48,453 bases of DNA, taken from Planctomycetota bacterium (GTDB lineage Bacteria > Planctomycetota > Phycisphaerae > Phycisphaerales > UBA1924). Under the pieces are notes generated by a model that was given only the letters and a program-made list of their open reading frames with translations, was not told where the DNA came from and searched no databases. The first letter of the stretch is position 1, and each line of letters begins with the position of its first letter. A program made the translations under genes and the position numbers. Below are positions 1,260 through 34,582 of the stretch, piece by piece. Location: positions 1 to 48,453 of the forward strand of contig JADFOF010000002.1 in the NCBI GenBank assembly GCA_022563015.1, read 5' to 3'.

Positions 1260-1453
1260 GGGCTAAGTAACTTAGGGCAGGCCTCGGAGATCTGTCGAGG
1301 TCGGCAACAAGACAGCGGATATGATCGGGTTGTGTATGGGTAGTGGTTGACCCATTCCCGAGAACGGTGAAACCTCGCCCTCGGAAGGCACAGCAGCCGC
1401 TCACCGCGGGCGGAGGGCACCCCGGTCGCCGATCCAGGAAAGGATGCTCACCG

Positions 1454-3363: not shown

Positions 3364-4118
3364 GGCGATCGAGAGGATTCACCCTGCTCGAGATCATGCT
3401 CGCCATCGCGCTCCTGATGGCGCTGTCATCGACGCTGTTCTCGTTCATGCTGAATCTGATGAGCGGTCGAGATCGCCTGATCGAGGCGTCGCGCGACGGC
3501 CGGGCCGGCAGCAGCCTCATCGAGCGGCTGGAGAACGACATTCTCGGTGCCATCGCCGGGGACGCGACGGTCGGGGCGGGGATCGACGGCCAGGAGCACA
3601 GGCTCACGCTCCTGACGCGTTCGGTCAACGTGCCCAGCGGGCCGGAAGAGCTCGACTGGGCATTGGGCGATCTGCTGTCGGCGCGGTATGTGTTCGATGA
3701 GGCGGCGTCGGAGGTGCGCACGGTCCGGCGGGCGATCGTGCCCGGCGGGTCGGTCTCGGAGGCTGACGACGAAGTGATCTCCAGTCGCGTGCGTCGGCTG
3801 CGGTTTCGCTATCACGACGGGCAGATGTGGCGGAGTTCGTACAACTCGCTGCAACGCAACGGCCTGCCGGTCGCGATCGAGGTGGCGATCTGGTTCGGCG
3901 ACCCGCCTTCGCGCCCCGCGCTCGGGTCGGATTTGCCTGAAGACGCCGGCGACAACACGCCGTTGCAGTTCGGCGATGACTTCCCGGAACAGCCGGCTTC
4001 TGACGCGGGTCGGTCTGTCGAAGGCGACGAGGGCCCGCAGACGTTCGGCGAGCCCGATCGCCTGCGCGTGATGGTGGTTCCTGACGGGCCGGTGGCGGCG
4101 TGGAAGGGGGGGCGATGA
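3360..4118 (+). CDS. gspJ: Minor pseudopilin GspJ-like
   Basis: MRRSRGFTLLEIMLAIALLMALSSTLFSF; ATGA overlap with gspI. Confidence 0.78.
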   Translation: MRRSRGFTLLEIMLAIALLMALSSTLFSFMLNLMSGRDRLIEASRDGRAGSSLIERLENDILGAIAGDATVGAGIDGQEHRLTLLTRSVNVPSGPEELDWALGDLLSARYVFDEAASEVRTVRRAIVPGGSVSEADDEVISSRVRRLRFRYHDGQMWRSSYNSLQRNGLPVAIEVAIWFGDPPSRPALGSDLPEDAGDNTPLQFGDDFPEQPASDAGRSVEGDEGPQTFGEPDRLRVMVVPDGPVAAWKGGR

Positions 4119-5767: not shown

Positions 5768-7353
5768 TCGGTAAAAAGGTACAATTCGCGCTCGAGATCG
5801 ACCGCGATCGCATCTGCGCGGTCCACGCGGATGTGCAGCGGCATCGGGTTGCGGTGCGGGCCTGGTGCTGCGCGGATCGGCCCGACGAGATCGACCCGTC
5901 GAACGCGGAGGCGGTGGGGGGCTGGGTCGCCCGCGAGCTTGCTCGATCGGGTATGCCCAGGAGCGGGGCCGTGATCGTCGTCCAGCGGGCGGAGGTCGTC
6001 CTCAAGAGGTTCATTCTGACCGTCGACGAGCAGTGGCGAGACGAGGATCTGGTCTCGATGGTTCGGCTGCAGATCTCGCGCCAGATCCCGGTGCCGATGG
6101 AGGGCACGGCGGTGGACTTCGTCCAGTTGCCCCAGAGCGTCTCGCCCACCGCGCCCGGTGCGGACGAGCAGCAGGGGCGTGTCGTGCGCGTGCTCGCCGG
6201 CGCGCTGCCGGGAGATCGGCTGAACTGGATCCGGGAGACGGCCAAGCGTGGTGGGCTCGGCGTCAGCCGCATCGGCCTGCGGGCGTCCGGTGCCGCAGCG
6301 GTCTTCGCCGAAACCTCCATCGCCCATGACGGGCCCATCCTCGGGGTCGCGCCCGGAGCGGCCTCGACCGAGTGCGTCATCGTCGAGAACGGTCGCCTGC
6401 TCTTCGCACGCGCTGTCGATCTGCCACTCCCTGACGACGCGGACATGCTCCCCGACTATGCCCAGCAGGTCGCGGTCGAGGCGAAGCGGACGTGGATGGC
6501 CTATCGCGCCAACCCGGATTCATCCGAGGTTCACGCGGTGTCGGTGCTGGGGCATGGCCCGGTTGCGCACGACATCGGGCGGGTCTGCGCGGCGGAGCTC
6601 GAGATGCCGTACGAGCGTCTGCGGCTGTCGGCGGCGATCGAGTTTCCGCCGGAGATGACCGACTGGGAGCGCAGCGTGGCGCTGCCGTTGATCGGCCTCA
6701 TGGCCGAGTCGGTCTTCACCGAAACTACACTGGACTTCCTGCATCCACGCCACGCGCCGGACCGGGCGGCGACACGCCGGCAGCGTGCGCTGCTGGGGGT
6801 GCTCGCGGCCGTGCTTGTGTTCGGGTCATTCGGCGCGTTCGGCTGGCTGCGCCTCGGGGATCTCGAGGATCGGCAGCAGAATCTGGAAGATACTCTCGGC
6901 CGGGCGCGCGTGAGCCACGCGAAGTTTGTCGTCGAGTCGGCGCGGCTGAGCCATCTCGAGCACTGGATCCAGCCGAGCGTCGACTGGGTCGCCCACCTCG
7001 CGTGGTTGAGCGATCACCTGCCCAGCACGCAGGAGGCGCGATTGGACGGCTTCGGCGGCGTGATGGACGGCGAGGTGGTGTTCACCTTGCCGCGCGGTGT
7101 GCGCGATATCACCAGCGGCCGGTGGTCGTCCAGCCAGAGCGTCGAGATCTCGCTGGGCGGGCCCGCCGTCAGCCGCGACATCGCCGACCAGTTCCGCGAG
7201 AGGCTGCTCGGGTCAAACGTGTACCGGGTCGACACGCGCGGGGCCGACGTGGCGGATTCATTCCAGCTTCTCTTGCACACCTCGCTTGGTTCACCGGCCG
7301 ACGCTGTGGTTCCCGCGGATGATCCCGACGCAGGACCGGAGGGCGAAGGATGA
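5764..7353 (+). CDS. GspL/PilM(-PilN)-like assembly protein
   Basis: N-terminal MIGKKVQFALEIDRDRICAVHADV (actin-like PilM/GspL style), central TM (ALLGVLAAVLVFGSFGAFGWL) and coiled coil. ATG at 5764 overlaps the gspK stop; the 643-aa track ORF overextends upstream. Confidence 0.65.
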   Translation: MIGKKVQFALEIDRDRICAVHADVQRHRVAVRAWCCADRPDEIDPSNAEAVGGWVARELARSGMPRSGAVIVVQRAEVVLKRFILTVDEQWRDEDLVSMVRLQISRQIPVPMEGTAVDFVQLPQSVSPTAPGADEQQGRVVRVLAGALPGDRLNWIRETAKRGGLGVSRIGLRASGAAAVFAETSIAHDGPILGVAPGAASTECVIVENGRLLFARAVDLPLPDDADMLPDYAQQVAVEAKRTWMAYRANPDSSEVHAVSVLGHGPVAHDIGRVCAAELEMPYERLRLSAAIEFPPEMTDWERSVALPLIGLMAESVFTETTLDFLHPRHAPDRAATRRQRALLGVLAAVLVFGSFGAFGWLRLGDLEDRQQNLEDTLGRARVSHAKFVVESARLSHLEHWIQPSVDWVAHLAWLSDHLPSTQEARLDGFGGVMDGEVVFTLPRGVRDITSGRWSSSQSVEISLGGPAVSRDIADQFRERLLGSNVYRVDTRGADVADSFQLLLHTSLGSPADAVVPADDPDAGPEGEG

Positions 7354-8315
7354 AGTTCGCCGGCAAGCACATCGCGATGAGCGTCGGCGCGCTGCTGGGC
7401 GTGATCGCAGTCCAACGCGCGTACAGCGTGCTGTACGCCTCGCCTCGCGATGCGCTCAACACGAAGATCAGCAGGCAGCAGGAGGAGCTGAATCGGTATG
7501 TCGGTGACGCGGCCGCAAGGGATGAACTCACCGGCAGGCGCAGCGAATTCATCGCAACCACACTCGGCGGCCAGGTCGACGAAGTGCAGCACGAGTTCCG
7601 AACGCGACTGACCGAAATCGCCAGGACGAGCGGTCTGATCGAGGAAGAGATCAAGGTGAGCAGCGGGAATCCGAGGTTCCCAGCCAATCCGGCGGCTCGA
7701 AGAGCGACGAAGTCATGGCGGGACCTCTTCCGCGCCGATCCGGATTTTGCGGTGATGGAGGGGCAGGTTCGCGGCGTGGGCACGCTCGATGACGTGCTGC
7801 GCACGGTGGCAACCATCCAGGCGCAGTCGTGGGCGCACCGTGTGGACTCGATCTCGCTGCGACCGTCGGCCGACGCCGAGACGTTCGAGCTGCGCGTGGG
7901 TGTGCGGACGGTGTTCCTGCCGGGCGAGAATCCCGAGACACTTCCGCCGGTGGAGGAACTCCCGATCAACGGGGAGATGGCCTGGGCGGGCATCGTGGCC
8001 AAGAATGTGTTTCGAGAGCCCAAGCCGACGGAGGCGGTCGTTGTGGCCCCGCCAACGCCCGAGACTCCGGTCGGCAAGCCGTCCCCGCCCTATCACGAAT
8101 GGCGTATGGTCGGCGTGTGGGACGGCGCGAATACGCTGGGTGTCATTCTTGTCAACACGCGCACCAAGGTTTCCCGGCTGCTCGTGCCCGGGGACCGTGT
8201 GCTGGGAGCGAAGCTGATTTCGGCGGCCGGTGAGCGGGCCCAGTTCGAGGTTGAAGGCACGCGCTACGAGCTGCTGCAGAAGCAGACGCTGGCCGAGTGG
8301 AGAGAACTGCACTAG
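7350..8315 (+). CDS. GspM/PilO-like protein with a C-terminal GspC homology-region-like segment
   Basis: N-terminal TM and coil (MSVGALLGVIAVQRAYSVLY...TKISRQQEELNRYV); C-terminal EWRMVGVWDGANTLGVILVNTRTKVSRLLVPGDRVLGAKLISAAGERAQFEVEGTRYEL resembles GspC HR domains; ATGA overlap with upstream gene. Confidence 0.55.
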   Translation: MKFAGKHIAMSVGALLGVIAVQRAYSVLYASPRDALNTKISRQQEELNRYVGDAAARDELTGRRSEFIATTLGGQVDEVQHEFRTRLTEIARTSGLIEEEIKVSSGNPRFPANPAARRATKSWRDLFRADPDFAVMEGQVRGVGTLDDVLRTVATIQAQSWAHRVDSISLRPSADAETFELRVGVRTVFLPGENPETLPPVEELPINGEMAWAGIVAKNVFREPKPTEAVVVAPPTPETPVGKPSPPYHEWRMVGVWDGANTLGVILVNTRTKVSRLLVPGDRVLGAKLISAAGERAQFEVEGTRYELLQKQTLAEWRELH

Positions 8316-8363: not shown

Positions 8364-11300
8364 ATGGACCGCAAGCAACACACATCATTGGCATTGGCGA
8401 TGGTCTTGACGGCTGGTCTGGCCGCACCGTCATACGCGATCATGCAAGAGAGCGTTCTCGCTGCGGACACGGCGCCGGCAGCGGTCACGCCTGAGGACCC
8501 GGGCCCACCGGCTGTCGATCCCGAGAAGCTGATTCGATTCAACTTCACGGAAGCGCCGTATTCAGCGGTGCTCGAGGCGTTCTCGCGCGAGTCCGGCTTG
8601 CCCATGATCCGCGAGGCCGAGCCGCCCGAGACCACGATGACCTTCATCAGCGGCAGCGCGTACACGTTCGACGACGCGCTGGGCATCCTCAACCAGTTCT
8701 TGAGAATGCACAACGTCTATGTGGCGCACGAAGACAACTATCTGTACTTCCGCACGCTGAAGGACGAAGCCCGTCAGGCGCGCCAGCCGGTCGGCGGACC
8801 CGTACCACCAGGCATTCCCGGGTACGAGATCGTGACCGTCACCATCCCGCTCAACAACGCGGCCGCGGCCACGACGCGGGAGAAGATCGAACGGCTGGTC
8901 GATCCGGACTACGGCAGCGTGATCGACGTGCCCGGGCCGAACTTTCTGATCGTCACCGAGACCGCCGATCAGTGCCGCAGGATCTGGGAGATCGTGTCGA
9001 TGATCGACGCCGATCTCGTGGATTTCAAGACCGAGTTGTACACACTCAAGTACTCCAAGGCGCAGGACGTGTACACAGCCCTGAAGGAACTGGTCAAGGT
9101 CAAGACGATCGAGACGATCATCGACCTGAAGGGCAACGTAACCACGCAGGTCAAGGACGGCAACGTCGACGGGCTCAACTTCTGGGCCGATGAACGCACG
9201 AACTCCATCCTTCTGGTCGGGCCGATGGCCCGCATCCAGGTCGTCACGGAACTGATCGAGCTGCTCGACGTTCCGGGCGGGCCCGGCGGCGAGCGGGAGA
9301 TGCGCACATTCCTGCTCGAGTCGATCACACCAGCGCAGGCGGCCACGAGCCTGGGCGATCTGTTCCGCGCGGTGCCGGATGATCGCAAGCCGACGATTCT
9401 GCCGCTGCCGGAGGTGGGCAAGATCACCGTCGTGGCGGCTCCGGGCGAGATGCTGCACGCGATATCGCTGCTGGGCGAGATCGACCCGGACTCAACGTCC
9501 GCGCTGCGCCCGCAGGGTGAGACGCCCGGCACCTATGGCAATCGCACGTACAAGCTCGTCCGCCTGGAGCACGTCACGCCGCAGCAGGCCGAGCAGATCG
9601 TCAAGCGATTGCTCACGGCACGGCAGCAGACCGTGCTGCGTTTCACGCCCTCGCCGGACGGCCGATCGTTGATCGTGTCCGGCCCATCGACGGATGTGGA
9701 GAGCTTTGAGACGCTCGTCGCGGGGATAGACCTCGCGCCCGATTTTGATAAGGAGTTCCGCCTTGTCCGCGTGACCAAGGGAGACCCCGCCCGGGTGCTG
9801 GCTCGGGCCGAGAGTCTCTTCACGGAAACCGGTCAGGCCGAGAAGCACCCCCTGACCATCTCGCTGGACAACCAGACCGGCGAGATCCAGTTGATCGGAT
9901 CCCGGCAGGGTCTGGCAGCGTTCGAGTCGTTGTTGCGCACGGTTGAAGCCGGCGTCGAGATCGACACCGAGGCACGCCATTACGTCCTTTCCCATATCTT
10001 GCCCAGTTCGATCGTGTCGAGTCTGACGCGGCTGTCGCGCCCGCTGCTCGAGCCGTCGGACGGCTCGGCGTACATCGCGCCGAGGTTCGAGGCGCTGGAC
10101 GAGCTGGACCGGCTGATCGTTCGTGCCGAGCCCGACCAGTTCACCATCATCGAGGAACTGATCGATGTCCTGGATCAAGAGGCGCCCGGCTCGACGCAGA
10201 TCCGATTCGAGCGCGTGCGGATGGGTGATCCGAACACGCTGGTGCAGCGTGCGCTGTCGCTGTACGAGGAGCGCACGCAGGGGATGGACGACCGCGACGC
10301 CGGGCCGGTGAACGTCGAGGTGGACACAGCCTCGGGCACGCTGGTCATCCGGGGAACGGCCGGTGGCATCCGGCTGTTCACCGAGTCGCTGACCCAGGTC
10401 CAGCAGCTCGTGCCGCCGCAACGGACCATGCGGATCGTCGATATTCAGAACGTGCGTGCGTCCGAGATCATCGAGCCGTTGCGCCAGTTCCTCGACTCCA
10501 CCGACCCGGTCGATCCGGCGCGCCGGGTCCCGGACCCGGACCTCGCCGTGGTCGAGCGGACGAACTCGCTGCTGGTCACGGCCGAGGACGCCCAGCACCG
10601 GCTGATCGCGGACTACGTGCGCCGGCTGGACGTGATCGAGCGGTCGGACCTGCCGCCGTTGCGGCTGCTTCAGATCAAGACCGCCGATTCGGCCGCCATC
10701 GCCTCGATGCTCACGCAGCAGTACGCCAAGCGTCCGCAATCGGACCGGGCGGCGCGGCCTGTCGAGGTGCGGGCGGACACCGCCACCAACACGCTCATCG
10801 TGTCGGCGCACCCGGAGCTGTACGACGAGATCAAGGACTTCGTCGAGCTGCTCAACACGCAGGAAGACGAGCCGGAACGCCAGACCATCCTGTTCCCGCT
10901 CAAGGTTGCCAAGGCGGACCTGGTCGCCGCCGCGATGGACAGGCTCTTCCCGGTGCCTCCCATGCCCCGTGATTCTCGCAACCGTCCGATGCCGTGGCTG
11001 CAGAAGGAGAAGGAGATCACGGTCTCGGCCGAGACGAGCAGCAACTCGCTCATCATCGACGCGCCGACGGACCGGATTCCTTCGCTGGAGGAACTCGCGC
11101 GCAAGCTCGACATCGTGGAGCTGCCGCCACAGGCGCAGCTGCGCACCTATCGCGTCATCAAGGCCGACCTCACCGCAGTCGCCACCACGCTCCGGGGCAT
11201 GTCCTCAAAGGGCATCCTCTCGGCCCCGGCGCAGCCCGGCAAGCAGCCCGTGCAGGTCGTGATCGAGACCGAGCCGCGGAGTTCGACGCTCATCGTGGCC

Positions 11301-14300
11301 GGCGACGAGGTCACGTTCGAGCGCGTCGAGCAGTTGCTCGAGGATCTCAACGAGGTGATCGTCGAGAGGGGCCTTCGCATCATCCCGATCGTCAATGCCC
11401 AGGTCGAAGACGTGCGCGAGCGGGCGCTGGCGATCTACAACGCCCAGATCGAATCGCTGCCCGGTGCCACACACGTGGACGTCACCATCAACTCCAAAAC
11501 CAACTCACTCGAGGTTGTCGGCGACGAGGACGCGCTGGGACGCTTCGTGAAGATTCTCGATGAGCTCCAGCGTCAGGCCGGACCCGCCCGCGAGGTTCGC
11601 ATCATCGAGCTGCGCCTGGCCAAGGTCGCCGACGTCGTCGGCTTCCTCGAGGAGATGGTCTCGGCGAGCGAGTCGATGCGGATCCAGGGCGGGCCCACGC
11701 CGGTCTTCGAGCCGATCGAAACGACCAACTCGCTGATGGTGGCCGCAACGACGGCGCAGTTTCCCATCATCGAGTCGCTGGTGCGGAGTCTGGACGCGCA
11801 GCAGACGGTCGATCGTCCGCCGCTGAAGATCCTGGCGCTGGACGCGACCGACGCAACGAGTCTGGCCAGCGTGCTGCAGCGCACGTACGACCAGAGGCCG
11901 ATGGACGAGCGGGCGAAACAGCCGGTCGAGATCCAGTCCGATCCCGCGACCAACACGCTGATCGTCTCGGCGCACGAGGACCTGCTGCCGGAGATCCAGG
12001 ACATCGTGCGCGAGCTCAACCAGAGCCGCATCGGCGACGAGGATCGCGAGATCCGCATCTTCCCGCTCCGGGTCGCGCGTGCCGAGGACCTGGCCAGGAC
12101 GATGGACGAGATGTTCCCCGTGCCGCCGATGCCCAAGGACTCGCGGGGCCGACCGCTCCCGCACCTGCAAAAGCCCAAGGAGATATTCGTTCGCGCCGAC
12201 CGCGCGACGAATTCGATCATCGTGGACGCCCCGGCCAAGCGGATGGCCGAGTTCAACGAGATCGTGAAGATGCTCGATTCGCCTCGGCAGTCGGACGTCG
12301 AGGTGCGCACGTACCGGATCGAGCGTGCGGACCTGGCGGCGGTGACGCGCACGCTGCAGGATCTCGCCTCGCGCGGCGCGCTCCCGCAGAGCGGGCAGAC
12401 CCCCGTCACCGTCAACGCCGAACCGATCAGCCGTACGCTCATCGTCAGCGGCCCGTCGGAGGTGTTCGAGGCGGTCGAGCAGATCCTGCTCGATCTCGAC
12501 GCCAGGCCCGACATTCCCCCGACCACGTTGAAGATGTACACGCTGAAGCACGCCCGGGCGGAGCGGCTGTCGAGCCTGCTCACCGATCTTCTGACGACCC
12601 GGCTGCGCGAGCAACAACTCGAGGAAGGGTTCGCCGTCGCGAGCATCGAAAGTCTGCTGCACGTGGCGGCGGATTCGGCGACCAACACGCTCATCATCTC
12701 CGCGCCCGAGGACGTGCAGCTGATCGCGGCGGAATTGATCAAGGTGCTTGACAGTGAGGCCGCACAGGTCGGGCGCGCGATCATCCGTGTGGTTCCGCTT
12801 ATCTACACCGACGCGGCGCAGGTCGCGCAGGATCTGATCGGCGCCCTGGCGAACTACGATTTGCCCACTGGCGGGACGGTCAGTGTGGTCCCGGCCCGCG
12901 GCTCGAACGCGCTGGTGCTGTCGGGCGCCGCCAAGGATCTCGACAAGATCGAAAAGGAGCTGATCGCCAACCTCGATCGTCAGCCGTTCGATCCGGAGAA
13001 GCCCGCCGTCGAGACCTTCGGGCTCGAGCACGCCGACGCGACCGCGATCGCTCAAACCGTCGAGCGCCTGCTCAAGGAGCAGCAGGAGACCGACCCGCGC
13101 ATCTTGCAGCTCATGGCGCGGTATCAGCGGAATCGGCCCGACCTGTTCAAGCAACCGTCGATCCGTGTCGAGGCCGAGCCGCGGACGAACTCGCTGCTCG
13201 TGTCCGGGACCGCCGCGACCATCGAGCTGGCGACAGCCATCATCGAGCGTCTGGATCAGCCGGCCGAGCAGGAGGAGCGTGAGTTGGTCACCTTCACACC
13301 GATGCGTGCCGACGCCGTGACGCTCGCCGCCGCCGTCTCCCGCATCGCCGAACAGACCATCGTGCGCACGCGCCGTCCGCTGGAGATCGTGGCCGAGCCG
13401 ACCTCGGGGAGCGTGCTCGTGATCGGCTCCAAGGAGCAGACCGCGCAGGTGGTGCTTCTGCTGGCGGAGTTTGACGACCGGACGCCGACCATCCCGCGGG
13501 TCGAGGTCGGCGTGTTCGATGTGATGCACACGGACGCCAGCTCCGTCGCGCGCACCGTGCAGGCGATGCTCAACGACCGTTCCCGCTGGCCGGACGAACT
13601 CCGGCGCGCCGAGCGCGCGGGGGTGGGCGTGCCGCAGCCGACCGTCAACGCGGACGGCAACAGGCTCGTCGTCAGTTCGCCCGTCGGGCTGATGGCGCTG
13701 GCGAGCGAGCTCATCGCGACCATCGATCAGCCGCCCAGCGGCGGCACACGCGAGGTGCGTGTATTTCGGCTGCACAAGGGCGAGGCGGAATCCGTCGCGA
13801 CGGCGGTCCGCCTGGCACTGGAGTCCAGCGCCGAACCAGGCCAACCCGTCCCCGTCGTGACACCCGAGCCCGCGAGCAATTCGATCGTCGTGTCCGGCCT
13901 GGCCGAGCAACTCATCGAGGCGGCCGAACTCATCACGTCGATGGACGACGCGGTCGAGCCGGGCGGCATGGGCGTGCGCACGATCTTTCTGGAGCACGCA
14001 CGGGCCGAGGCCATCGCCCCCATCATCGAACAGATATTGGAGAAGGAATCGTTCTTCGACCAGCTCGCGCCGTGGGAGAGAAGCCGCTACGTGGGCCGGT
14101 TCGGGGCCCCCCCGGACCAAGGCGGAATTCGTGTCTCCGCCGAACGCCGGCTGAACGCGATTGTCATCAGCGCGCCCGTCCATGTGCTCGAACTCGCTGA
14201 GCAGGTCGTGCACGAACTCGATGTGGACAGGGCGGACGCGGCCGCGTCAAGACCCATCCGCGTCATTCCGCTGCTCAACGCCGACGCGGCCCAGCTCGCG

Positions 14301-17300
14301 GCCAACGTCGAGGCGGTGTTCGAGGAAGACGAGTCCGGCGACCCGCCGCCCACGATTCGCGTCGATATAGAGGGCAACGCCCTCATCGTCCGCGCGACGA
14401 CCGATCAGATGGCGATGATCGAATCGCTGGCGAAACAGCTCGATTCGGCGGCGTTCGGATCACAGCGACAGCTCCGCATGATCCCGATCGACCGGTCCAA
14501 AGTGGACGCGACGATCATGGCCCTGACGCTCAAGCGCCTCATGGAGCACCGGGGCGGCGTCAAGGTCGAGGTCATCACCATCGAAGAATTGCTCACTGAG
14601 CCCGAGGAAACCGAGGACCCGGGCGGGGTGGGCCTGGCGCCCCCCGGGCGTGGCACGGGCCCCGCTGACACAATCGCGCGCATCGCCGCATATGCCGTCG
14701 CCGCGCAGCCGGAGCAAGTAGACAATTCGGGAAAAGTGGACGGGTCGGCTGGCGAAGTGGCGCAGCTCGACCCCGATGACGATACGCCCGTCATCCGGAT
14801 CGCCGTCGACCTCGACACCAACATGCTGGTCGTGATCGGTCCGCCGCGCCTGACCGACAGACTGTTTGAGCTTGTCACACATCTCCAGGACCAGATGCCC
14901 GCGGAGCCGACGGCGGTCCACATCGTCCCGCTTCCGGCCAGCATCAACCCGACGGACGTGCAGCGGCTTGTGAACCAGACCGTCCAGCAGGTCGGTCGCA
15001 CCTCGCCGACGAACCCGGGCGGATTCACCGGCAGGGTGGTGGCGCAGCCGGATCCGAGCGGCGGGGCGCTCATCGTCTGGGCCAACGACACCGACTTCGC
15101 GTCGATTCGCGAGATCATCACCTCGGTGGTCAAGCTCGACACGGCCACGCGGCTGACCATCAAGGTCTATCGCCTCGAAAACATCACCGCCCAGCGGGCG
15201 ATCCAGGCCATCAACGACCTGTTCACCGCCAGCCCGCGTGGCCGGCAGGCGCGCCGAATCCGAGGGCTCGACCTCACCATGCAGACGTCGGACGGGCGGG
15301 AGATCCGCGGCAGGCTCGACCCGTCGCTCATCCGTGTCACGGCGGATCCGAACGGCACGTCGATCATCGTCGCGGCGCCGGGCGATTCGATCCCGCTGAT
15401 CGACGAGCTGATCGGCGTGATGGATCAGAGCGACGTGTCCGAGCGGCTGTCGATCCGGCGGTACGCCCTGACCAACGCCCGGGCGGACGACCTCAACCGC
15501 ACGCTCCAGCAGCTCTTCGACGCCCAGCGGCAGGGGCCGAATCGAAACGAGATGCCACAGGCGCAGTTCATCGCCGATCAGCGGACGAACTCGCTGCTCG
15601 TGACCGCGTCGGAGGCGCAGCATCGCGAGGTGGAGCGGCTGCTCGTTGCTGCGGACGCGGCCGAGCTGGACGACGGGCTCGAACTCGAGATCATCACACT
15701 GCAGCACGCCCTGCCGTCGATGGTCGAGAAGATCATCAAGCAGGTGATCGTCGGCAACGATCCGGGGCGCGAGGGCCGCGTTCAGATCTCGGCCGATGAC
15801 GCGAGCAACGTGCTGGTCGTGCGCGCCTCGCCCGAGGACTTCTGGAATATCAGGCGGATCGTGGCCGAGGTGGACGGGGCCGACGTCGGGCAGCTCGCGG
15901 TTCGATCGATCAAGCTCGATCGCGCCGACGCGCAGAACGTCGCGCAATCGCTGCAACGATTCTTCCAGGACCGTGCGAGCGTGGCGAACCGAGCCGGTCG
16001 CGGCGGTGCCCGAAGCCGCGTCGCGATCACGGGCGATCGGCGGTCCGGCACGATCGTTGTCGCCGCCTCGGACGAGGACTTCGAGCAGATCCAGTCTCTG
16101 GTCGAGATGTTCGATCGGGAGAACGCGCAGGGCGACTGGCAGTTCCAGATCGTGCCGCTCAAGCACGCGAGCGTGTCGGACATCGCCGGGACGGTTGAGG
16201 ACATCGCCAATCAGATTCAGTTCGGCGGCTACTTCTTTTTCCGTCCGCGCGGGGCAGAGCAGGGTCGCGAGGACAAGATCTATGTGCGGAGCAACGAGCG
16301 CACGAACAGCCTGGTCGTGTTCGGAACCGGAGAGTTGTTCGATCAGATCCTGGGCGTGATCGAGAAGCTCGACCAGCCGTACTCGACGCAGGCGCTGCGC
16401 GTGGTCAAGGCGATCCGCGTCGAGGGTGCGGATCTGCGCGCGATGGCCCGGGTGGTCACGCAGGCGATGGAGAACCCGAATCGCGAGCGATGGTGGCTGC
16501 CCGATGCGGACGCCGTGCAGGTGCAGGTGGATCAGCGGCGACGGCTGCTCATGCTCATCGGGCCCGCCGAGCGCGTTGACATCGCGTTGGGGTACATCGA
16601 GGACCTGGCGCGGGCCGGCACACCCGAGACTCGCGAGATCGACACGATCGCGCTCCGACACGCCGAGGCCAGCGCAGCCGCGCGAAGCATCACCAGTTTC
16701 TTCCGCGATCGCGCCCGGGCGATGGGGCTGGCGGATCAGGAGGTCACGGTGATCGGCTCACCGGACGGCAACGTGCTGATCGTGTCGGCCGACCCCGAGC
16801 AGATGGTGCTGCTTCGCGATCTCGTGGCTCGGATCGATACCCCGACCGATGATGGCCGGCGCACGGAGGTGTACGTTCTCAAGCACACCACGGCCGAGGA
16901 GGCTGCGGGAACCATCAAGAGCCTCATGGATACCTCCGGCGAGGACGCGGTCCGCGTCATGCCCCAGCCGAGCACCAACGCGATCCTGGTCTCGGCCCCG
17001 GAGGATCAGTTCGAGCACATCGACGCGCTCATCGCGCAGCTGGACGTCGAGCCCGATCTCGAGGACGCCAGCATTGTCTCGGTGACGCTGCAGAACGCCC
17101 GGGCCGAGGACGTGGCCGAAGCGCTGCGCGACGCGCTGCCCGACACGATCAAGGTCAAGATCACGCCGGTATCGCGAACCAACTCGATCATCGTCAGCGG
17201 CACGCCCGAGGCCGTGAAGCTCGTCATCGATCAGATCCCGATATTCGAGATGGAGCCGTCCAGGCCGGCGATCGAGTTCCGGCGCTTCCAACTCACGAAC

Positions 17301-20300
17301 GCGGACGCGTTTGACGTCGTGATGACTTTGGAGCGGCTGGCGCGGGGAATGGATCGATCGCGCAACGCGCCCGAGCCGAATATCGACTACCTGCGTGACG
17401 AAAACGTCGTGCTCATCACCGCGCCGCTGGAGCAGATCGAGACGCTCTCGCAATGGATCGAGCAGCTCGATGTCACTTCCGAAGACGATCAGGTCACCGA
17501 TTTCGTCGAGTTGGAGTACGCCCAGGCCGAGCAGGTCGCCAACGCCCTGGACGTGTTCTACGGCCCGTACGCGAGGCAGGCCAAGACGCCCGGCGCCCGG
17601 AACGTGTCCATCGTGGCCGACCCGGTGACGAACTCGCTGATCATCAGCGCCAACGAGACGGAATGGATCAACATCCGCGCGTTGCTCGAGCGGTTCGACA
17701 ATGAGAAATACGACACGGCGCAGACCATCCGGCTGATCGCGCTCAAGCACGCGGACGCGGCGACGGTCGCCCGCGCGCTCAACGAGGGCTTCCGTGCGCC
17801 CATCGAGGCCCAGCTGCAGCGCGAACGCATCCAGATCGAGGCACGCGAGCGGGGCCGGCGAGGCAGAAACGACGACTTCGGGTTCGCCCAGCCCGCCGTT
17901 CTGCTCGACCTGGACGACACGCCAACCGTGTCCGCTGAACCGATGACAAACTCGTTGATCATCTTCGCCAGCAAGAAGCAGATCCAGCGGATCGAGAAGA
18001 TCGTCGAGCAGCTCGACAGCGACGAGTTCGTTCAGATCAACCAGCCCCGCATCATCCCCATCACGACCGGGCGCCCGAGCGAGATCGCGGGCGTTATCCG
18101 CCAGACATTCGAGAACCGAAGCGTGCGCAGCGGTCCGCGCAGCCTGCTGGTTGTGGGCAGCGATTCGGCGGGAGTCCTGATCGTGCGCGCCGATGAGGCC
18201 GACTTCGCACAGGTCCTGGCGCTGGCCGAGTCCCTACAGCAGGAGGGCCTGGAGTCGTTGCCGACCGTGCGCACGATCGCGCTGCACGGCACGCCCGCGT
18301 CGAGACTGCGCGACACGCTGCTGGCGTCGTTCCAGCCCGTGGCCCAGAAACGCGGCGAGTCACTCGCGATCACCGTCGATCGGTCGAGCAACCGCCTCGT
18401 CATCTCGTCGAGCAAGGACCTGTTCGAGCAGATCCGCGAGGTGGCGCTGGAGCTGGACGGCTCGTTGGGCGGCCCGGAGGGCTTGCGCGATGGGATCGGG
18501 CAGTCCGTCAAGATCGTCAATGTCACGAACAACGATCCCGCCGCGATCCGACAGATGCTCAATCAGATGGGTGTCATGCGGGGTCAGCCCGCCGATCTGC
18601 CCGGCGTTGTGAACGATCCCGTGCAGGTCGTGCCGCTGCGCACGAGGCGCGCCGTCGCGCTGATCGGCAACCCGGTGGACATCGAGGCGGTGGCCTCGCT
18701 CATCGCGGTGATCGACGCTGAGCCGCTCGCGTCGGAACAACACATCGCGATTGTGCACCTGATGCAGAACGATGCCGACCGCGTCGCCTCGGCGATGCGG
18801 GAATTGCTCGACGTGGCCTCGGGCGCGAACACGGCTCCGGCACAGGCGCTTCAGGAGCAGATTCGTCGGCTGAACATTGCCCGCAACGGCATCGGCGACG
18901 AGGACTTGTCGCTGGACCTTTCGGTTCCGATCAGACTCATCCCGGATTCAACGACGAATACTCTCTCAATCGCATCGACGATAGAGAACGTCGCCGCGCT
19001 GATAGTACTGGCAAAGAGTTTCGACACACTGGCGCTGGGCGACGCGGTGGTCGTCCGCATCTTCGCGTTGGAGAACGCGGACGCCGGGCGAACCAAACGC
19101 GTGATCGACGAGCTGTTCCGGCAGGGCGAATCCCTGAGTCGTCTCCCGGGTTCGCAGCGTCTGAGCACCCCGACCACAGCCACGGGCAAGGCGCTCGCGG
19201 GCACGATCGCGGTCTCTGTGGACGAGCGCACCAACGCGCTCATCGTCGCGGGCCGAGAGGAGGCCGTCGCGTTCGTCGAGGTGCTCATCGGCCAGCTGGA
19301 CTCCGATGAGGCTGCCAACTGGGTCGAAACTCGGGTAATCGCCCTCGAGCACGCCGACGCGCTTCGGTTGGCCGAGACGCTCCGTCGCGTGATCGTACAC
19401 GGCCAGCGAGAACTGCCCGGGGCGATGGGTCTGCAGCGGCAGGTCGCAAGGCTGCTCATGAGGGACGGCGACGGTCCCGAGGGAAGGATTGAGGCCGACC
19501 TGTTTCTTCCATTGACCGATGTCATCATCGAGGCGGAAGAGCAGCTCAACGCCCTGATCGTGGTCGCGTCGTCGTCCAACCTCAGGGTCGTGGGCAAGCT
19601 GGTCGAGATGCTCGATGTTCCGCTGGCCGGCGCCGACAACACCGTTCGCATCTACCCGCTGGAGTTCGCGGCGGCGGACCGCGTGGCGTCGATGATCGAC
19701 GGCTTCTTCGAGCGGCGTGAACGCTCCAAGCTCATGCGACCCGAGGACACAGTCATTATTACGCCGGACCTGCGGACAAACTCGCTCATCGTCTCGACCA
19801 GCCCCCGCAGCTTTACGCTGATCGAGAGTCTGCTCAAGACGATGGACGGCGAGGAGCGCGACTTCACGGTGGGGATCCACGTCCTGCCGGTCGAGGGCGC
19901 CGATGTGGCCCGGCTGGCACCGAAGATTCAGGCCGCAATGACCGAGCGTATCCAGGCCGGTCGGCGCGCCGGCGACGTGTCCTCGCCGCTCGATACGTTC
20001 CGTGTCGATGCGGATCCGACCACCAACGTGCTGCTGGTGACCTCCAGTGATGAAAACCTGCAGATCGTGAAGGATCTGATCGAGGCGTTGACGGCCGAGG
20101 GCGTGCCGGACGTGCGGGCCGCCGAAGGCTTCGCGATCATTCCCGTGACGACCCAGCCGCCCGAAGAGATCGCCGCCCACATCAACGAGATCTATGTGAG
20201 CAAGGAGAATGAACGTCGTGGCGAGGGCACGATCAGCGTGCGCCCCAACGAGCGTCTCAGCGCGCTCATCGTGAGCGGCACCGAGGAGGACATCAAGCAG

Positions 20301-22163
20301 ATCCGGTCGCTGGTGGAGCGGCTCGACATGGCCGAGATCATCCAGGAACGCATCATCAAGCGCTTCGAGCTGGTGTCGTCCGACGCGCTGGCCGTCTCGA
20401 ATCTCCTGCAACAGGTGCTGGCCGGGCCGCCCGTCGGGCGAGGGCTCGGTGGAAGCGAGGCAGCGTTCAAGGTTCGGTACAACGATGTCGAGATGGAACT
20501 CGACGCCGCCACCCGCGCCCAGATCGCCGTCACGCCCGAGCTTGGCACGAACTCGATCTTCGTCCAGGCGCCGCCGGACGCGATGGCCTTCATCGAAGAG
20601 GTCGTCAATTCGGTCGAGCAGTCGCAGAACCTTGAGCGGACCATCGAGACGTTCCACCTGGTCAACGCGGACGCGAGGCAGATGGCCGAGGTGCTCAGCG
20701 CGCTGCTCAACCTCCGCCAGCAGGGCAACCGCATGATCCTCATTCCGACGCGCCGGCAGGGCGACGAGGAGCCCGAGGACCAGGAGGGTCTGTCGGGCAC
20801 GACGCTCACCGCAGTGCCCGACGAGCGGCAGGAGTTGTCGATCACGATCGACGCCCGGACCAACACGCTGCTGGTCTCCGGCACGGAGGAATACCTCGAT
20901 CTGGTGCGCAACATCGTGACCGAGCTGGACTCAATCGAGGCGGACGAGCGCGCGACGCTCGTGTTCGACCTGCAGAACGCCAAGGCCGAAGAAGTGGAGC
21001 AGCGCCTGCGAGACCTGTACCGGGCCGAGTCCGAAGCCCGGCAACGCGCCCTCGGGGGCCAGGAGGGCGGGTCGGCCAGCTCGGTATTCGAGCGGGAGGT
21101 TACGGTGGTCGGGGACGTGGCCTCGAACAAGGTCATCGTTCAGACCTCGCCGCGCTACATCAAGCTGGTCGAGGACATCATCAAGGAGCTCGACGCCCGT
21201 CCGCCGCAGGTCGAGATCCAGGTGCTCCTGGCCGAGGTGACGCTGGACGAGAGCACGCAGTGGGGAGTGGACTTCGACATCACCGATTTCGGGGGCGACA
21301 TGTACACGTTCGGGTCGCTCGCCGCCGGGGCCGGCGTCGCGTCGGCGCTGGGCGTGCCGAATCTCACGCTCTCTTCGGCTGACTTCGGAATTATGATTCG
21401 ATCGCTCGAGGCCCAGGGCCGCCTCGAAGTCCTCAGCAGGCCCAACGTCACCGTGAACAACAACCAGTCGGCCCGCATCAATGTGGGCCAGAACATCGCG
21501 CTGGTCACCGGCACGCAGTTCTTCGCGCAGGGCAACTCCCAAGCGATCGTAGAGCGAGAGGACGTGGGCATCATCCTCGAAGTCACGCCCTCGATCAGCA
21601 GCGACGGGTACGTGCGGCTGGAGATCTCGCCCACCATCTCTCAGGTCTCGGGCACGTCGGATCAGATCTCCGCGGGCGTGTTCTCGCCGCGCATCGACAT
21701 TCGAGAGATACAGACGACCGTCACGATCCGCGACGGGCAGACGATCGTCATCGGCGGCCTCATCCAGACCACGTTGGTGGATCGCGAGACCAAGGTGCCG
21801 TTCTTTGGAGACCTCCCGATCATCGGCCCCCTCTTCCGGTCCACGGATACCAACATCGTCAAGACGGAGCTGCTCGTCATCCTGACACCCACGATCATCC
21901 CTGGGGATGGTGTTCAGCACGCAACTCGTGTCAATCAGATTATCGCCGAAGAGATTTCCAGGAGATCCAACTCCGAGACGCTGCTCAAGATCGTGGAGGA
22001 GATGCAGCGCGGACCGGCGAAATCTGATTCCGCACCGGACGCCGATGCGCCCGGCAAGGGCGACAAGTCGGGCGAGAAGTGCATGGGCGAAGTGGACGAC
22101 GAAACCGAGAAGACGCACTCCAAAGCGCCCGCTGGTTCTGATCCCCCGGAGCCCGGAGCATGA
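8364..22163 (+). CDS. Giant type II secretion-like secretin (4599 aa) with about 50 tandem N-domain repeats
   Basis: Signal-peptide-like N-terminus; N0-like domain (LIRFNFTEAPYSAVLEAFSRESGLPM...); about 50 copies of a (T/S)N(S/T)L(I/L)VSG...I..L...LD motif; C-terminal secretin domain with RLEVLSRPNVTVNNNQSARINVGQ, DGQTIVIGGL, KVPFFGDLPIIGPLFRS, KTELLVILTPTII. Single uninterrupted frame. Confidence 0.93.
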   Translation: MDRKQHTSLALAMVLTAGLAAPSYAIMQESVLAADTAPAAVTPEDPGPPAVDPEKLIRFNFTEAPYSAVLEAFSRESGLPMIREAEPPETTMTFISGSAYTFDDALGILNQFLRMHNVYVAHEDNYLYFRTLKDEARQARQPVGGPVPPGIPGYEIVTVTIPLNNAAAATTREKIERLVDPDYGSVIDVPGPNFLIVTETADQCRRIWEIVSMIDADLVDFKTELYTLKYSKAQDVYTALKELVKVKTIETIIDLKGNVTTQVKDGNVDGLNFWADERTNSILLVGPMARIQVVTELIELLDVPGGPGGEREMRTFLLESITPAQAATSLGDLFRAVPDDRKPTILPLPEVGKITVVAAPGEMLHAISLLGEIDPDSTSALRPQGETPGTYGNRTYKLVRLEHVTPQQAEQIVKRLLTARQQTVLRFTPSPDGRSLIVSGPSTDVESFETLVAGIDLAPDFDKEFRLVRVTKGDPARVLARAESLFTETGQAEKHPLTISLDNQTGEIQLIGSRQGLAAFESLLRTVEAGVEIDTEARHYVLSHILPSSIVSSLTRLSRPLLEPSDGSAYIAPRFEALDELDRLIVRAEPDQFTIIEELIDVLDQEAPGSTQIRFERVRMGDPNTLVQRALSLYEERTQGMDDRDAGPVNVEVDTASGTLVIRGTAGGIRLFTESLTQVQQLVPPQRTMRIVDIQNVRASEIIEPLRQFLDSTDPVDPARRVPDPDLAVVERTNSLLVTAEDAQHRLIADYVRRLDVIERSDLPPLRLLQIKTADSAAIASMLTQQYAKRPQSDRAARPVEVRADTATNTLIVSAHPELYDEIKDFVELLNTQEDEPERQTILFPLKVAKADLVAAAMDRLFPVPPMPRDSRNRPMPWLQKEKEITVSAETSSNSLIIDAPTDRIPSLEELARKLDIVELPPQAQLRTYRVIKADLTAVATTLRGMSSKGILSAPAQPGKQPVQVVIETEPRSSTLIVAGDEVTFERVEQLLEDLNEVIVERGLRIIPIVNAQVEDVRERALAIYNAQIESLPGATHVDVTINSKTNSLEVVGDEDALGRFVKILDELQRQAGPAREVRIIELRLAKVADVVGFLEEMVSASESMRIQGGPTPVFEPIETTNSLMVAATTAQFPIIESLVRSLDAQQTVDRPPLKILALDATDATSLASVLQRTYDQRPMDERAKQPVEIQSDPATNTLIVSAHEDLLPEIQDIVRELNQSRIGDEDREIRIFPLRVARAEDLARTMDEMFPVPPMPKDSRGRPLPHLQKPKEIFVRADRATNSIIVDAPAKRMAEFNEIVKMLDSPRQSDVEVRTYRIERADLAAVTRTLQDLASRGALPQSGQTPVTVNAEPISRTLIVSGPSEVFEAVEQILLDLDARPDIPPTTLKMYTLKHARAERLSSLLTDLLTTRLREQQLEEGFAVASIESLLHVAADSATNTLIISAPEDVQLIAAELIKVLDSEAAQVGRAIIRVVPLIYTDAAQVAQDLIGALANYDLPTGGTVSVVPARGSNALVLSGAAKDLDKIEKELIANLDRQPFDPEKPAVETFGLEHADATAIAQTVERLLKEQQETDPRILQLMARYQRNRPDLFKQPSIRVEAEPRTNSLLVSGTAATIELATAIIERLDQPAEQEERELVTFTPMRADAVTLAAAVSRIAEQTIVRTRRPLEIVAEPTSGSVLVIGSKEQTAQVVLLLAEFDDRTPTIPRVEVGVFDVMHTDASSVARTVQAMLNDRSRWPDELRRAERAGVGVPQPTVNADGNRLVVSSPVGLMALASELIATIDQPPSGGTREVRVFRLHKGEAESVATAVRLALESSAEPGQPVPVVTPEPASNSIVVSGLAEQLIEAAELITSMDDAVEPGGMGVRTIFLEHARAEAIAPIIEQILEKESFFDQLAPWERSRYVGRFGAPPDQGGIRVSAERRLNAIVISAPVHVLELAEQVVHELDVDRADAAASRPIRVIPLLNADAAQLAANVEAVFEEDESGDPPPTIRVDIEGNALIVRATTDQMAMIESLAKQLDSAAFGSQRQLRMIPIDRSKVDATIMALTLKRLMEHRGGVKVEVITIEELLTEPEETEDPGGVGLAPPGRGTGPADTIARIAAYAVAAQPEQVDNSGKVDGSAGEVAQLDPDDDTPVIRIAVDLDTNMLVVIGPPRLTDRLFELVTHLQDQMPAEPTAVHIVPLPASINPTDVQRLVNQTVQQVGRTSPTNPGGFTGRVVAQPDPSGGALIVWANDTDFASIREIITSVVKLDTATRLTIKVYRLENITAQRAIQAINDLFTASPRGRQARRIRGLDLTMQTSDGREIRGRLDPSLIRVTADPNGTSIIVAAPGDSIPLIDELIGVMDQSDVSERLSIRRYALTNARADDLNRTLQQLFDAQRQGPNRNEMPQAQFIADQRTNSLLVTASEAQHREVERLLVAADAAELDDGLELEIITLQHALPSMVEKIIKQVIVGNDPGREGRVQISADDASNVLVVRASPEDFWNIRRIVAEVDGADVGQLAVRSIKLDRADAQNVAQSLQRFFQDRASVANRAGRGGARSRVAITGDRRSGTIVVAASDEDFEQIQSLVEMFDRENAQGDWQFQIVPLKHASVSDIAGTVEDIANQIQFGGYFFFRPRGAEQGREDKIYVRSNERTNSLVVFGTGELFDQILGVIEKLDQPYSTQALRVVKAIRVEGADLRAMARVVTQAMENPNRERWWLPDADAVQVQVDQRRRLLMLIGPAERVDIALGYIEDLARAGTPETREIDTIALRHAEASAAARSITSFFRDRARAMGLADQEVTVIGSPDGNVLIVSADPEQMVLLRDLVARIDTPTDDGRRTEVYVLKHTTAEEAAGTIKSLMDTSGEDAVRVMPQPSTNAILVSAPEDQFEHIDALIAQLDVEPDLEDASIVSVTLQNARAEDVAEALRDALPDTIKVKITPVSRTNSIIVSGTPEAVKLVIDQIPIFEMEPSRPAIEFRRFQLTNADAFDVVMTLERLARGMDRSRNAPEPNIDYLRDENVVLITAPLEQIETLSQWIEQLDVTSEDDQVTDFVELEYAQAEQVANALDVFYGPYARQAKTPGARNVSIVADPVTNSLIISANETEWINIRALLERFDNEKYDTAQTIRLIALKHADAATVARALNEGFRAPIEAQLQRERIQIEARERGRRGRNDDFGFAQPAVLLDLDDTPTVSAEPMTNSLIIFASKKQIQRIEKIVEQLDSDEFVQINQPRIIPITTGRPSEIAGVIRQTFENRSVRSGPRSLLVVGSDSAGVLIVRADEADFAQVLALAESLQQEGLESLPTVRTIALHGTPASRLRDTLLASFQPVAQKRGESLAITVDRSSNRLVISSSKDLFEQIREVALELDGSLGGPEGLRDGIGQSVKIVNVTNNDPAAIRQMLNQMGVMRGQPADLPGVVNDPVQVVPLRTRRAVALIGNPVDIEAVASLIAVIDAEPLASEQHIAIVHLMQNDADRVASAMRELLDVASGANTAPAQALQEQIRRLNIARNGIGDEDLSLDLSVPIRLIPDSTTNTLSIASTIENVAALIVLAKSFDTLALGDAVVVRIFALENADAGRTKRVIDELFRQGESLSRLPGSQRLSTPTTATGKALAGTIAVSVDERTNALIVAGREEAVAFVEVLIGQLDSDEAANWVETRVIALEHADALRLAETLRRVIVHGQRELPGAMGLQRQVARLLMRDGDGPEGRIEADLFLPLTDVIIEAEEQLNALIVVASSSNLRVVGKLVEMLDVPLAGADNTVRIYPLEFAAADRVASMIDGFFERRERSKLMRPEDTVIITPDLRTNSLIVSTSPRSFTLIESLLKTMDGEERDFTVGIHVLPVEGADVARLAPKIQAAMTERIQAGRRAGDVSSPLDTFRVDADPTTNVLLVTSSDENLQIVKDLIEALTAEGVPDVRAAEGFAIIPVTTQPPEEIAAHINEIYVSKENERRGEGTISVRPNERLSALIVSGTEEDIKQIRSLVERLDMAEIIQERIIKRFELVSSDALAVSNLLQQVLAGPPVGRGLGGSEAAFKVRYNDVEMELDAATRAQIAVTPELGTNSIFVQAPPDAMAFIEEVVNSVEQSQNLERTIETFHLVNADARQMAEVLSALLNLRQQGNRMILIPTRRQGDEEPEDQEGLSGTTLTAVPDERQELSITIDARTNTLLVSGTEEYLDLVRNIVTELDSIEADERATLVFDLQNAKAEEVEQRLRDLYRAESEARQRALGGQEGGSASSVFEREVTVVGDVASNKVIVQTSPRYIKLVEDIIKELDARPPQVEIQVLLAEVTLDESTQWGVDFDITDFGGDMYTFGSLAAGAGVASALGVPNLTLSSADFGIMIRSLEAQGRLEVLSRPNVTVNNNQSARINVGQNIALVTGTQFFAQGNSQAIVEREDVGIILEVTPSISSDGYVRLEISPTISQVSGTSDQISAGVFSPRIDIREIQTTVTIRDGQTIVIGGLIQTTLVDRETKVPFFGDLPIIGPLFRSTDTNIVKTELLVILTPTIIPGDGVQHATRVNQIIAEEISRRSNSETLLKIVEEMQRGPAKSDSAPDADAPGKGDKSGEKCMGEVDDETEKTHSKAPAGSDPPEPGA
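8820..21200 (+). repeat. Array of about 50 diverged secretin N-domain (N1/NolW-type) coding repeats, about 80 codons each
   Basis: Manual count of the terminal beta-strand/helix motif, from GPNFLIVTETADQCRRIWEIVSMID to ASNKVIVQTSPRYIKLVEDIIKELD. Confidence 0.88.
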
Positions 22164-22702
22164 GCCGGCTCGCGATCGACAGACGGTGCCGCGATGGAAG
22201 GCGCGTCCTGCGCACCGCCGCGCCTGTGGCCTTGTGTATCGCGATGATTTCCTGCGCGAGCGATCGCGCCGGCAGGAGGTCGCTGGGCAAGCCGCCGCAG
22301 GACGCCCAGCCGGCCCATCTGGTGATGGGCGTGCTCGGAAAGATCATCGATTCGGACGAGAACGGGTTCCCGGACACAATCGTCGTAGTGGTCAACGTGA
22401 TGATCCGCGTTCATCCCGTGCCGATCACACCCCCGGGCACGTTTGTGTTTCGACTCGAGGACGAGGATGGCACGGTTCTGGTGCGGTGGGAGCTGGACGA
22501 GGAATCGACGCGTGCGGCCCGGCGGCCGGCGACGCTGATCGGCCCGGGATACGTGTTCCGCCTCAGTATTCTCGACAAGATCCCCGACGCCATGCCGCCC
22601 ACCTCGATGAGCCTCAGCGCGACCTTCCTGCCCACCGTCGGCGAGCCGGCCGAATCCTCGGGGCGCAAATACGTGCGGTTCGGTCGCGATCGCGGTTATT
22701 AG
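22160..22702 (+). CDS. Small putative lipoprotein translationally coupled to the secretin gene
   Basis: ATGA overlap with the secretin stop; signal peptide with lipobox-like CIAMISCAS; no family recognised. Confidence 0.65.
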   Translation: MSRLAIDRRCRDGRRVLRTAAPVALCIAMISCASDRAGRRSLGKPPQDAQPAHLVMGVLGKIIDSDENGFPDTIVVVVNVMIRVHPVPITPPGTFVFRLEDEDGTVLVRWELDEESTRAARRPATLIGPGYVFRLSILDKIPDAMPPTSMSLSATFLPTVGEPAESSGRKYVRFGRDRGY

Positions 22703-22836
22703 GGCCGAGCATCGCGCGGAGATTTACGACCCATCGATCGAGAAATCGAACGATGCCCCCCGGACGGGTCGATACCCCGTCTATCATTGTGTCTACAGCT
22801 CACGAACACCAAACAAGAGCAGGACAAGAGGGCAAC

Positions 22837-25707: not shown

Positions 25708-25759
25708 GCCGCCGCATCCGACCCGCAGTTGACCAGCGTACGAGAGAAAGCCCCGCACC

Positions 25760-32634: not shown

Positions 32635-32818
32635 GGACCTGGGGGGCCAGGATTGGAGATCGGCTCTAACTCAATACAGGGCCGTGCTTTGCGTCCAGAC
32701 CCGCTTTGGCACCGCGATTGCCGCCCTTGGGACCGGGGAGTGCACGCGCCCAGAGTGTCGGGCGGGCTCTCGCCGGCTGATTCCCAACCCCACACCCGTA
32801 CAGACGGAGCAACGACCC

Positions 32819-34582
<1,764 letters not shown>

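What the first reader, a model, noticed from the sequence alone, without database searches (positions are those of the whole stretch)
8364..22163. Giant secretin: about 50 tandem N-domains in one 4599-aa GspD-like protein
Seen: one 13.8-kb frame with an N0-like domain, about 50 repeats of a roughly 80-aa unit each ending in a TNSLIVSG-like strand plus a helix ending LD, then one canonical secretin domain. Established: ordinary GspD secretins have N0 plus three N1-N3 domains, and each N-domain forms a ring layer in the periplasmic channel. Inference: 12 to 15 subunits would stack about 50 rings, giving a tunnel far longer than an ordinary periplasm. It could bridge an enlarged or invaginated periplasm such as that of Planctomycetota, or project as a filament. 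Strong divergence between repeats in an intact frame argues for long-term selection and against an assembly artefact.
Basis: partly seen in the sequence, partly recalled or inferred. Interest (0 to 1): 0.97.

Follow-up and report, generated by a model that had tools for sequence, protein, structure and literature searches.

The report
Giant 50-ring bacterial secretion tunnel protein
A planctomycete gene encodes a type II secretion outer-membrane channel protein with about 50 stacked-type domains where known relatives have up to six, and close relatives across a whole bacterial class keep equally giant versions with each domain in its own conserved place, implying an extraordinarily long channel through the cell envelope that nobody appears to have described.

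Summary
ORF 8364-22163 (+) is one intact 4599-aa frame: signal peptide, N0 domain, 50 tandem N-type (beta-alpha-beta-beta-alpha) repeats over residues 160-4277, and one canonical secretin domain. It is the last large gene of a type II secretion operon (GspF-G-H-I-J-K-L-M/C-D, then a lipoprotein). It is not an assembly artefact: 45 complete fused homologues with 22-62 repeats (median 47) were recovered from the same bacterial class, several in closed single-contig genomes, and the largest is 6165 aa with 62 repeats. Within the order the repeats are one-to-one orthologous and collinear (for example 49 of 49), under strong purifying selection (omega about 0.09). Giant and operon co-occur (28/30 versus 1/25 genomes). 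Some lineages split the array over two or three consecutive genes. The most likely mechanism is a GspD-type oligomer whose N-domains stack as about 50 rings, roughly 130-210 nm if fully extended. Membership in the GspD/secretin family is well supported. Ring stacking, the length in cells and bridging of an enlarged periplasm are inference. I found no earlier description in the open literature searched. Verdict: a new, extreme variant of a known kind, and very interesting.

The parts
37..1056 (+). GspF (inner-membrane platform); near the contig edge, 5' part probably missing
   Evidence: PF00482 E=4.9e-53; orthologue at the same place in 9 relatives
1343..1948 (+). GspG, major pseudopilin
   Evidence: PF08334 E=2e-20 and N_methyl; conserved in relatives
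1973..2788 (+). GspH-like minor pseudopilin
   Evidence: Prepilin-type N-terminus, weak N_methyl E=0.0075; position conserved
2785..3363 (+). GspI-like minor pseudopilin
   Evidence: Prepilin-like N-terminus by eye; conserved position; no significant Pfam hit
3360..4118 (+). GspJ-like minor pseudopilin
   Evidence: N_methyl plus weak PF11612 T2SSJ, E=0.00074 but below cut-off
4100..5767 (+). GspK
   Evidence: PF03934 T2SSK E=2.1e-7 and PF12836 HHH_3 E=3.2e-15
5761..7353 (+). GspL/PilM-like protein (likely start at 5761)
   Evidence: PF11104 PilM_2 E=4e-6, just below cut-off; orthologue in 28 of 30 giant-bearing and 1 of 25 giant-less family genomes
7350..8315 (+). GspM/PilO-like protein with a C-terminal GspC-HR-like domain; candidate inner-membrane partner of N0
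   Evidence: N-terminal TM, Pro-rich linker, C-terminal RLLVPGDRVLGAKL-like stretch read by eye; no Pfam or PDB hit, so inference; conserved directly upstream in 9 relatives
8364..22163 (+). Giant GspD-type secretin, 4599 aa, 502 kDa
8364..8438 (+). Sec signal peptide (MDRKQHTSLALAMVLTAGLAAPSYA)
   Evidence: Read from the sequence; inference, no predictor was run
8532..8774 (+). N0 domain
   Evidence: Profile of relatives matches GspD N0-N1-N2 structures; AF2 model pLDDT 87 and Foldseek to PulD/XcpQ/GspD N-domains
8841..21194 (+). Array of 50 N-type (Secretin_N) repeats, residues 160-4277
   Evidence: AF2 of repeats 28-32 gives five E-H-E-E-H units, Foldseek best hits are GspD-family secretins
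10200..12500 (+). Recent duplication of a 5-repeat block (repeats 7-11 and 12-16; 9/14 are 47% and 11/16 49% identical)
   Evidence: part of this block is missing in several relatives
21405..21899 (+). Secretin (outer-membrane barrel) domain
   Evidence: PF00263 E=1.5e-46 on the protein and 1.7e-48 on the genome; phmmer to solved GspD E=3.9e-41
22160..22702 (+). Small lipoprotein, candidate pilotin-like partner
   Evidence: Lipobox-like Cys; homologue directly downstream of the giant in 7 relatives; function inferred from position only

Best explanation
The gene encodes the GspD secretin of a type II secretion system in which the usual few periplasmic N-domains were expanded, by duplication of blocks of repeats, to 50. 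Shown: sequence, domain order, operon, conservation and selection. Inferred: about a dozen or more copies form an outer-membrane barrel through the C-terminal domain; the N-domains stack as about 50 rings into one very long conduit; N0 at the far end docks on the inner-membrane platform, probably through the GspM/GspC-HR-like protein encoded just upstream; a pseudopilus moves cargo along the conduit. The number of layers would set the reach. At 25-42 A per ring, N0 plus 50 rings would be roughly 130-210 nm, which requires a wide periplasm at these sites or a curved or compressed stack.
For: One frame with N0 + 50 repeats + secretin. It lies in a conserved T2SS operon. Giant and operon partner GspL co-occur in 28/30 versus 1/25 genomes, Fisher p=3e-12. 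45 complete fused homologues with 22-62 repeats, several in one-contig genomes. Repeats are orthologous position by position: 49/49 with G060, 48/48 with G023, 38 of 39 in order with G086, against about 10-11 by chance. Omega 0.093 against a same-genus relative over 3959 codons. The 14 repeats nearest the membrane are 99% retained across 35 relatives, and gains and losses fall mainly in the middle and come in blocks of 4-5, as expected of a spacer with specialised ends. Solved secretins use the same domain to build ring layers; Thermus PilQ with six rings is 350 A long and spans a wide periplasm (PMC5745081). AF2 and Foldseek give N-domain folds and GspD hits.
Against: No structure, expression or imaging data. 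AF2 pTM is low (0.43 and 0.53), so the arrangement between domains is not determined. A conduit of 130 nm or more is far longer than an ordinary periplasm, and no measurement exists for these organisms. Planctomycete crateriform complexes sit where the cytoplasmic membrane is close to the outer membrane (PMC5394234). Splitting of the array over 2-3 genes in some lineages means one covalent chain is not essential. GspC-HR and pilotin assignments rest on position and pattern only.
Confidence: 0.58

Rival explanations
1. Same secretin, but only the N0 end and the membrane-proximal repeats form rings; the middle of the array is a flexible or folded string of domains (a tether, or a sponge around the channel) that lets the machine reach inner membrane at variable distance.
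For: Low inter-domain confidence in AF2. The 14 C-terminal repeats are the most conserved and the middle varies most. The planctomycete periplasm is variable in width (PMC5394234). Thermus PilQ is flexible between rings (PMC5745081).
Against: Every repeat keeps the N-domain pattern, its own positional identity and low omega, more than a loose linker needs. Linkers are short, about 9 aa.
Confidence: 0.25
2. The machine is mainly a fibre-extruding (pilus-like) system, such as the pili-bearing crateriform structures of planctomycetes, rather than a protein secretion system; the long stack guides a long pseudopilus.
For: T2SS and type IV pili share all these parts. Pili-like fibres leave crateriform outer-membrane structures in other planctomycetes (PMC5394234). 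A major pseudopilin is in the operon. GspE is not in the operon and many GspE/PilB ATPases exist in the genome.
Against: The operon has GspK and the GspH-I-J set and is T2SS-like. The NCBIfam GspD model scores far above PilQ. The published crateriform work is on species of another class, whose GspD is about 1300 aa by my counts (the species link is from my own knowledge).
Confidence: 0.14
3. The array is cut off after export or has a separate periplasmic job (binding substrate or peptidoglycan), and the secretin works with few rings.
For: Secretin-less N0+array proteins exist elsewhere in the phylum (2690 and 3259 aa), one beside GspE/GspF. In some class members N0+array and array+secretin are separate genes.
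Against: 45 fused versions are conserved. The split genes stay adjacent, in order and in the same operon place, which suggests one stack built from several proteins.
Confidence: 0.1
4. Assembly artefact or chimeric repeat expansion.
For: The window is a contig of a fragmented MAG, 461 contigs. G075 shows the array broken into three overlapping frames.
Against: Giants of similar size in closed one-contig genomes G086, G036, G102, G326, G130. Repeats only 22% identical cannot collapse or expand in assembly. Collinear orthologues.
Confidence: 0.01

Closest known systems
GspD, type II secretion secretin (for example E. coli 5wq7, Klebsiella PulD 6hcg)
   Same: Order N0 - N-domains - secretin barrel; type II operon; sequence and fold matches in N0-N2, mid-array and barrel
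   Different: 50 N-type repeats instead of three (N1-N3); 4599 aa against about 650; no pilotin-binding S-domain identified
Thermus thermophilus PilQ (six N-rings, 350 A long)
   Same: The earlier example of a lengthened N-ring stack, which spans a wide periplasm (PMC5745081)
   Different: Type IV pilus/DNA-uptake secretin with N0-N5 only; here 8-10 times more layers and a T2SS operon
Type III (InvG/MxiD) secretins and other ring-building-motif proteins
   Same: Same small ring-building fold
   Different: One or few N-domains; needle complex; none of the T3SS genes here
Planctomycete crateriform structures (PMC5394234)
   Same: Large outer-membrane complexes of planctomycetes that contact the cytoplasmic membrane, some with pili-like fibres; possible sites of such machines
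   Different: Protein identity unknown in the text read; described in another class; no link to this gene tested

Membership tests
Secretin superfamily | C-terminal secretin barrel domain (PF00263) | tested here: met
   E=1.5e-46, 158 bits against cut-off 27.5; phmmer to solved GspD E=3.9e-41
Secretin superfamily | N-terminal ring-building N-domains (PF03958) | tested here: met
   36 significant Pfam stretches; 50 repeats by iterated HMM; E-H-E-E-H fold and Foldseek hits
Secretin superfamily | Homo-oligomeric ring of about 12-19 subunits in the outer membrane | not testable with these tools
   Needs biochemistry or cryo-EM
Type II secretion secretin GspD | N0 domain of GspD type | tested here: met
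   Profile hit to GspD 5wq7 residues 7-241 E=6.9e-27; Foldseek to PulD 6hcg and GspD 3ezj. Pfam alone did not recognise it
Type II secretion secretin GspD | Model-specific score (TIGR02517 type_II_gspD, cut-off 351 bits) | tested here: met
   1140 bits, though inflated by repeats; best stretch residues 4048-4515 matches model 118-593
Type II secretion secretin GspD | Encoded with GspE-M core genes | tested here: met
   F, G, K by Pfam, J and L weaker, H/I/M by position; co-occurrence p=3e-12. GspE is not in the operon; ATPases lie elsewhere
Type II secretion secretin GspD | GspC with HR domain that binds N0 | tested here: inconclusive
   HR-like C-terminus by eye on ORF 7350-8315; no Pfam or PDB profile hit. 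HR domains are known to share only 10-17% identity (PMC9239104)
Type II secretion secretin GspD | Pilotin/S-domain targeting | tested here: inconclusive
   Conserved lipoprotein directly downstream; no S-domain recognised
Type II secretion secretin GspD | Three N-domains N1-N3 after N0 | tested here: not met
   50 repeats instead; hence filed as an extreme variant, not an ordinary member
Type IV pilus secretin PilQ | AMIN domains and PilMNOPQ operon | tested here: not met
   No AMIN hit; T2SS-type operon

The most novel reading that the evidence does not exclude
A class of planctomycetes builds type II secretion conduits of about 20 to more than 60 stacked protein rings, up to well over 100 nm long, in which every ring layer is a distinct, individually conserved element. 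In some lineages the same stack is assembled from two or three different proteins. Ring number would be an evolvable ruler for envelope width.
Probability: 0.5. Interest if true: 0.97.

Novelty: new variant of a known kind. Interest (0 to 1): 0.92.

Why it matters
Known secretins have up to about six N-domain layers, so a conserved family with 22-62 changes the known size range roughly tenfold. It predicts a very large envelope machine (about 7.5 MDa if 15 subunits, by calculation) in bacteria whose unusual envelopes have long been debated. It gives a direct test of whether secretin ring number measures periplasm width. The one-to-one conservation of about 50 layers also offers a rare case of a long repeat array frozen in place rather than homogenised.

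Tried and rejected
Assembly artefact: rejected by closed genomes and collinear orthologues. Frame or stop artefact: rejected. Chance repeat detection: rejected by shuffled, reversed and ordinary-secretin controls. PilQ identity: rejected. First attempt to extract loci in Python failed on file layout (repeated). One Pfam call failed on wrong strand coordinates and one on a wrong frame (repeated). GspC-HR profile against PDB found nothing useful. The genome-contig scan with a single protein returned only the same-genus contig, so organism names of most relatives are unknown and comparison across phyla was not possible. Literature searches for giant or multi-N-domain secretins in planctomycetes found none; subscription papers and preprints were not searchable. 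Positional orthology with families f5, f8, f15, f16 and others was not detectable, so whether expansion was single or repeated across the class is open.

Full report
Observation. The frame 8364-22163 (+) is open from ATG to stop and encodes 4599 aa. Pfam finds 36 significant Secretin_N stretches and one Secretin domain. NCBIfam's GspD model scores 1140 bits, best on the C-terminal part. A repeat HMM seeded from 12 units and iterated resolves 50 repeats without large gaps, residues 160-4277, about 56-97 aa each with linkers near 9 aa. One repeat carries a long insert. Shuffled and reversed sequences give no hit below 1e-3, and the ordinary secretins of the same genome give 0-4. Repeats share 22% identity on average. 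The highest pairs (47-49%) are five repeats apart, the trace of a recent five-repeat block duplication.

N-terminus and fold. Residues 1-25 look like a Sec signal (sequence). Pfam does not recognise an STN/N0 domain. A profile of 28 relatives over N0 and the first three repeats matches solved GspD N0-N1-N2 at E=7e-27, and a mid-array profile matches GspD N-domains at E=3e-20. AlphaFold2 models of N0 to N3 (pLDDT 87) and of repeats 28-32 (pLDDT 80) give the N-domain folds; each of the five mid-array units is strand-helix-strand-strand-helix. Foldseek against the PDB returns GspD, PulD, XcpQ and ExeD first. Low pTM (0.43-0.53) means the relative placement of domains is not determined.

Operon. 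Directly upstream on the same strand lie GspF, GspG, two pseudopilin-like proteins, GspJ-like, GspK, GspL/PilM-like and a GspM/PilO-like protein whose C-terminus resembles a GspC HR domain by eye. That last point is unproven: the profile found no PDB hit, but HR domains are known to share only 10-17% identity (PMC9239104). A small lipoprotein follows the giant. The order is conserved in nine relatives for the upstream genes and in seven for the lipoprotein. GspE is not in the operon; the genome has 15 PF00437 matches elsewhere.

Distribution. In 100 relatives plus this genome, about half carry 25-76 Secretin_N matches, in single frames of up to 5018 aa, and the rest carry 12 or fewer except one with 19. 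In the same family, the GspL orthologue is found in 28 of 30 giant-bearing and 1 of 25 giant-less genomes, Fisher p=3e-12 (the two exceptions are fragmented assemblies, and so is the single giant-less genome with GspL). So the giant is the secretin of this operon, gained or lost with it. Five single-contig genomes carry it: G086 4856 aa, G036 4526, G102 4557, G326 3776, G130 4634, frame lengths stop to stop. I extracted 45 complete fused versions with N0, 22-62 repeats (median 47) and a secretin domain; the largest, G141, is 6165 aa with 62 repeats. The same-genus contig is titled Planctomycetota bacterium.

Evolution. Within the order, repeats pair one to one and in order: 49/49 with G060, 48/48 with G023, 47/47 with G036, 38 of 39 with the more distant G086, where chance gives about 10-11. 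Missing repeats come in blocks, mainly positions 7-12 and 18-21, while the last 14 repeats are 99% retained in 35 relatives. Against the same-genus relative, 3959 codons give dS 0.123, dN 0.011, omega 0.093. Each layer therefore has its own long-conserved identity. With other families of the class no positional match is detectable, so expansions may be independent or too old to align.

Split and secretin-less forms. In families f19 (G289) and f21 (G129) the same operon place holds two or three consecutive genes: N0 plus repeats, repeats only (G129), and repeats plus secretin. Outside the class, GspD proteins are about 1300-1500 aa, and separate N0+array proteins without a secretin exist (1495, 2690, 3259 aa), one of them followed by GspE and GspF genes. 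N-arrays are thus a phylum-wide theme, and the giant fused form belongs to this class.

Mechanism. Shown: it is a GspD-type secretin with 50 N-domains in a T2SS operon, conserved and under purifying selection. Established: secretin N-domains form stacked ring layers, and Thermus PilQ with six such rings is 350 A long and spans a wide periplasm (PMC5745081). Inferred: the 50 repeats stack as rings, giving about 130-210 nm at 25-42 A per ring (arithmetic; the 42 A figure assumes a secretin cap of about 100 A in PilQ), with N0 at the inner membrane. Neither study measured organisms known to carry the giant. Projection outward as a filament conflicts with the known topology of secretins. A partly unstacked, flexible array is the main rival.

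Novelty. No paper in the open-access library describes such secretins. It is a new, extreme variant of a known family, not a new kind of machine. It would be close to a new kind of structure if the long stack is real.

Noticed in passing
L082 + L063 (G289) and L074 (G129): The array is split into two or three consecutive genes in the same T2SS operon place: N0+repeats, repeats only, repeats+secretin. A stack could be built from several proteins.
   Followed up: partly
L061:741-10520, L062:9771-17843, L066:7806-12293: Outside the class, N0 plus many N-domains with no secretin domain (3259, 2690 and 1495 aa); the first is followed by GspE and GspF genes. Function unexplained.
   Followed up: partly
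L057 + L058 (G141:C18): Largest found: one 6165-aa frame with 62 N-repeats and a secretin domain.
   Followed up: partly
G084:C113 (L068) and G084:C34 (L069): One genome has two different giant arrays (about 3700 and 4231 aa).
   Followed up: no
L049 + L050 (G075): The array is broken into three overlapping frames in a two-contig genome; sequencing frameshifts or real split genes, not resolved.
   Followed up: no
window 22160-22702: Lipoprotein conserved directly downstream of the giant with a D(T/S)D(G/E)NGxPDT-like motif; candidate pilotin.
   Followed up: partly
window 21907-27040: 2-oxoglutarate dehydrogenase E1 and an acyltransferase E2 lie just downstream of the secretion operon on the same strand; among the ten relatives compared only G015 shows the E1/E2 pair in its fetched downstream region.
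   Followed up: no
window 32684-34582 and 36970-38583: Two chaperonin (Cpn60) paralogues, followed by DnaJ, GrpE and a zinc-ribbon protein.
   Followed up: no
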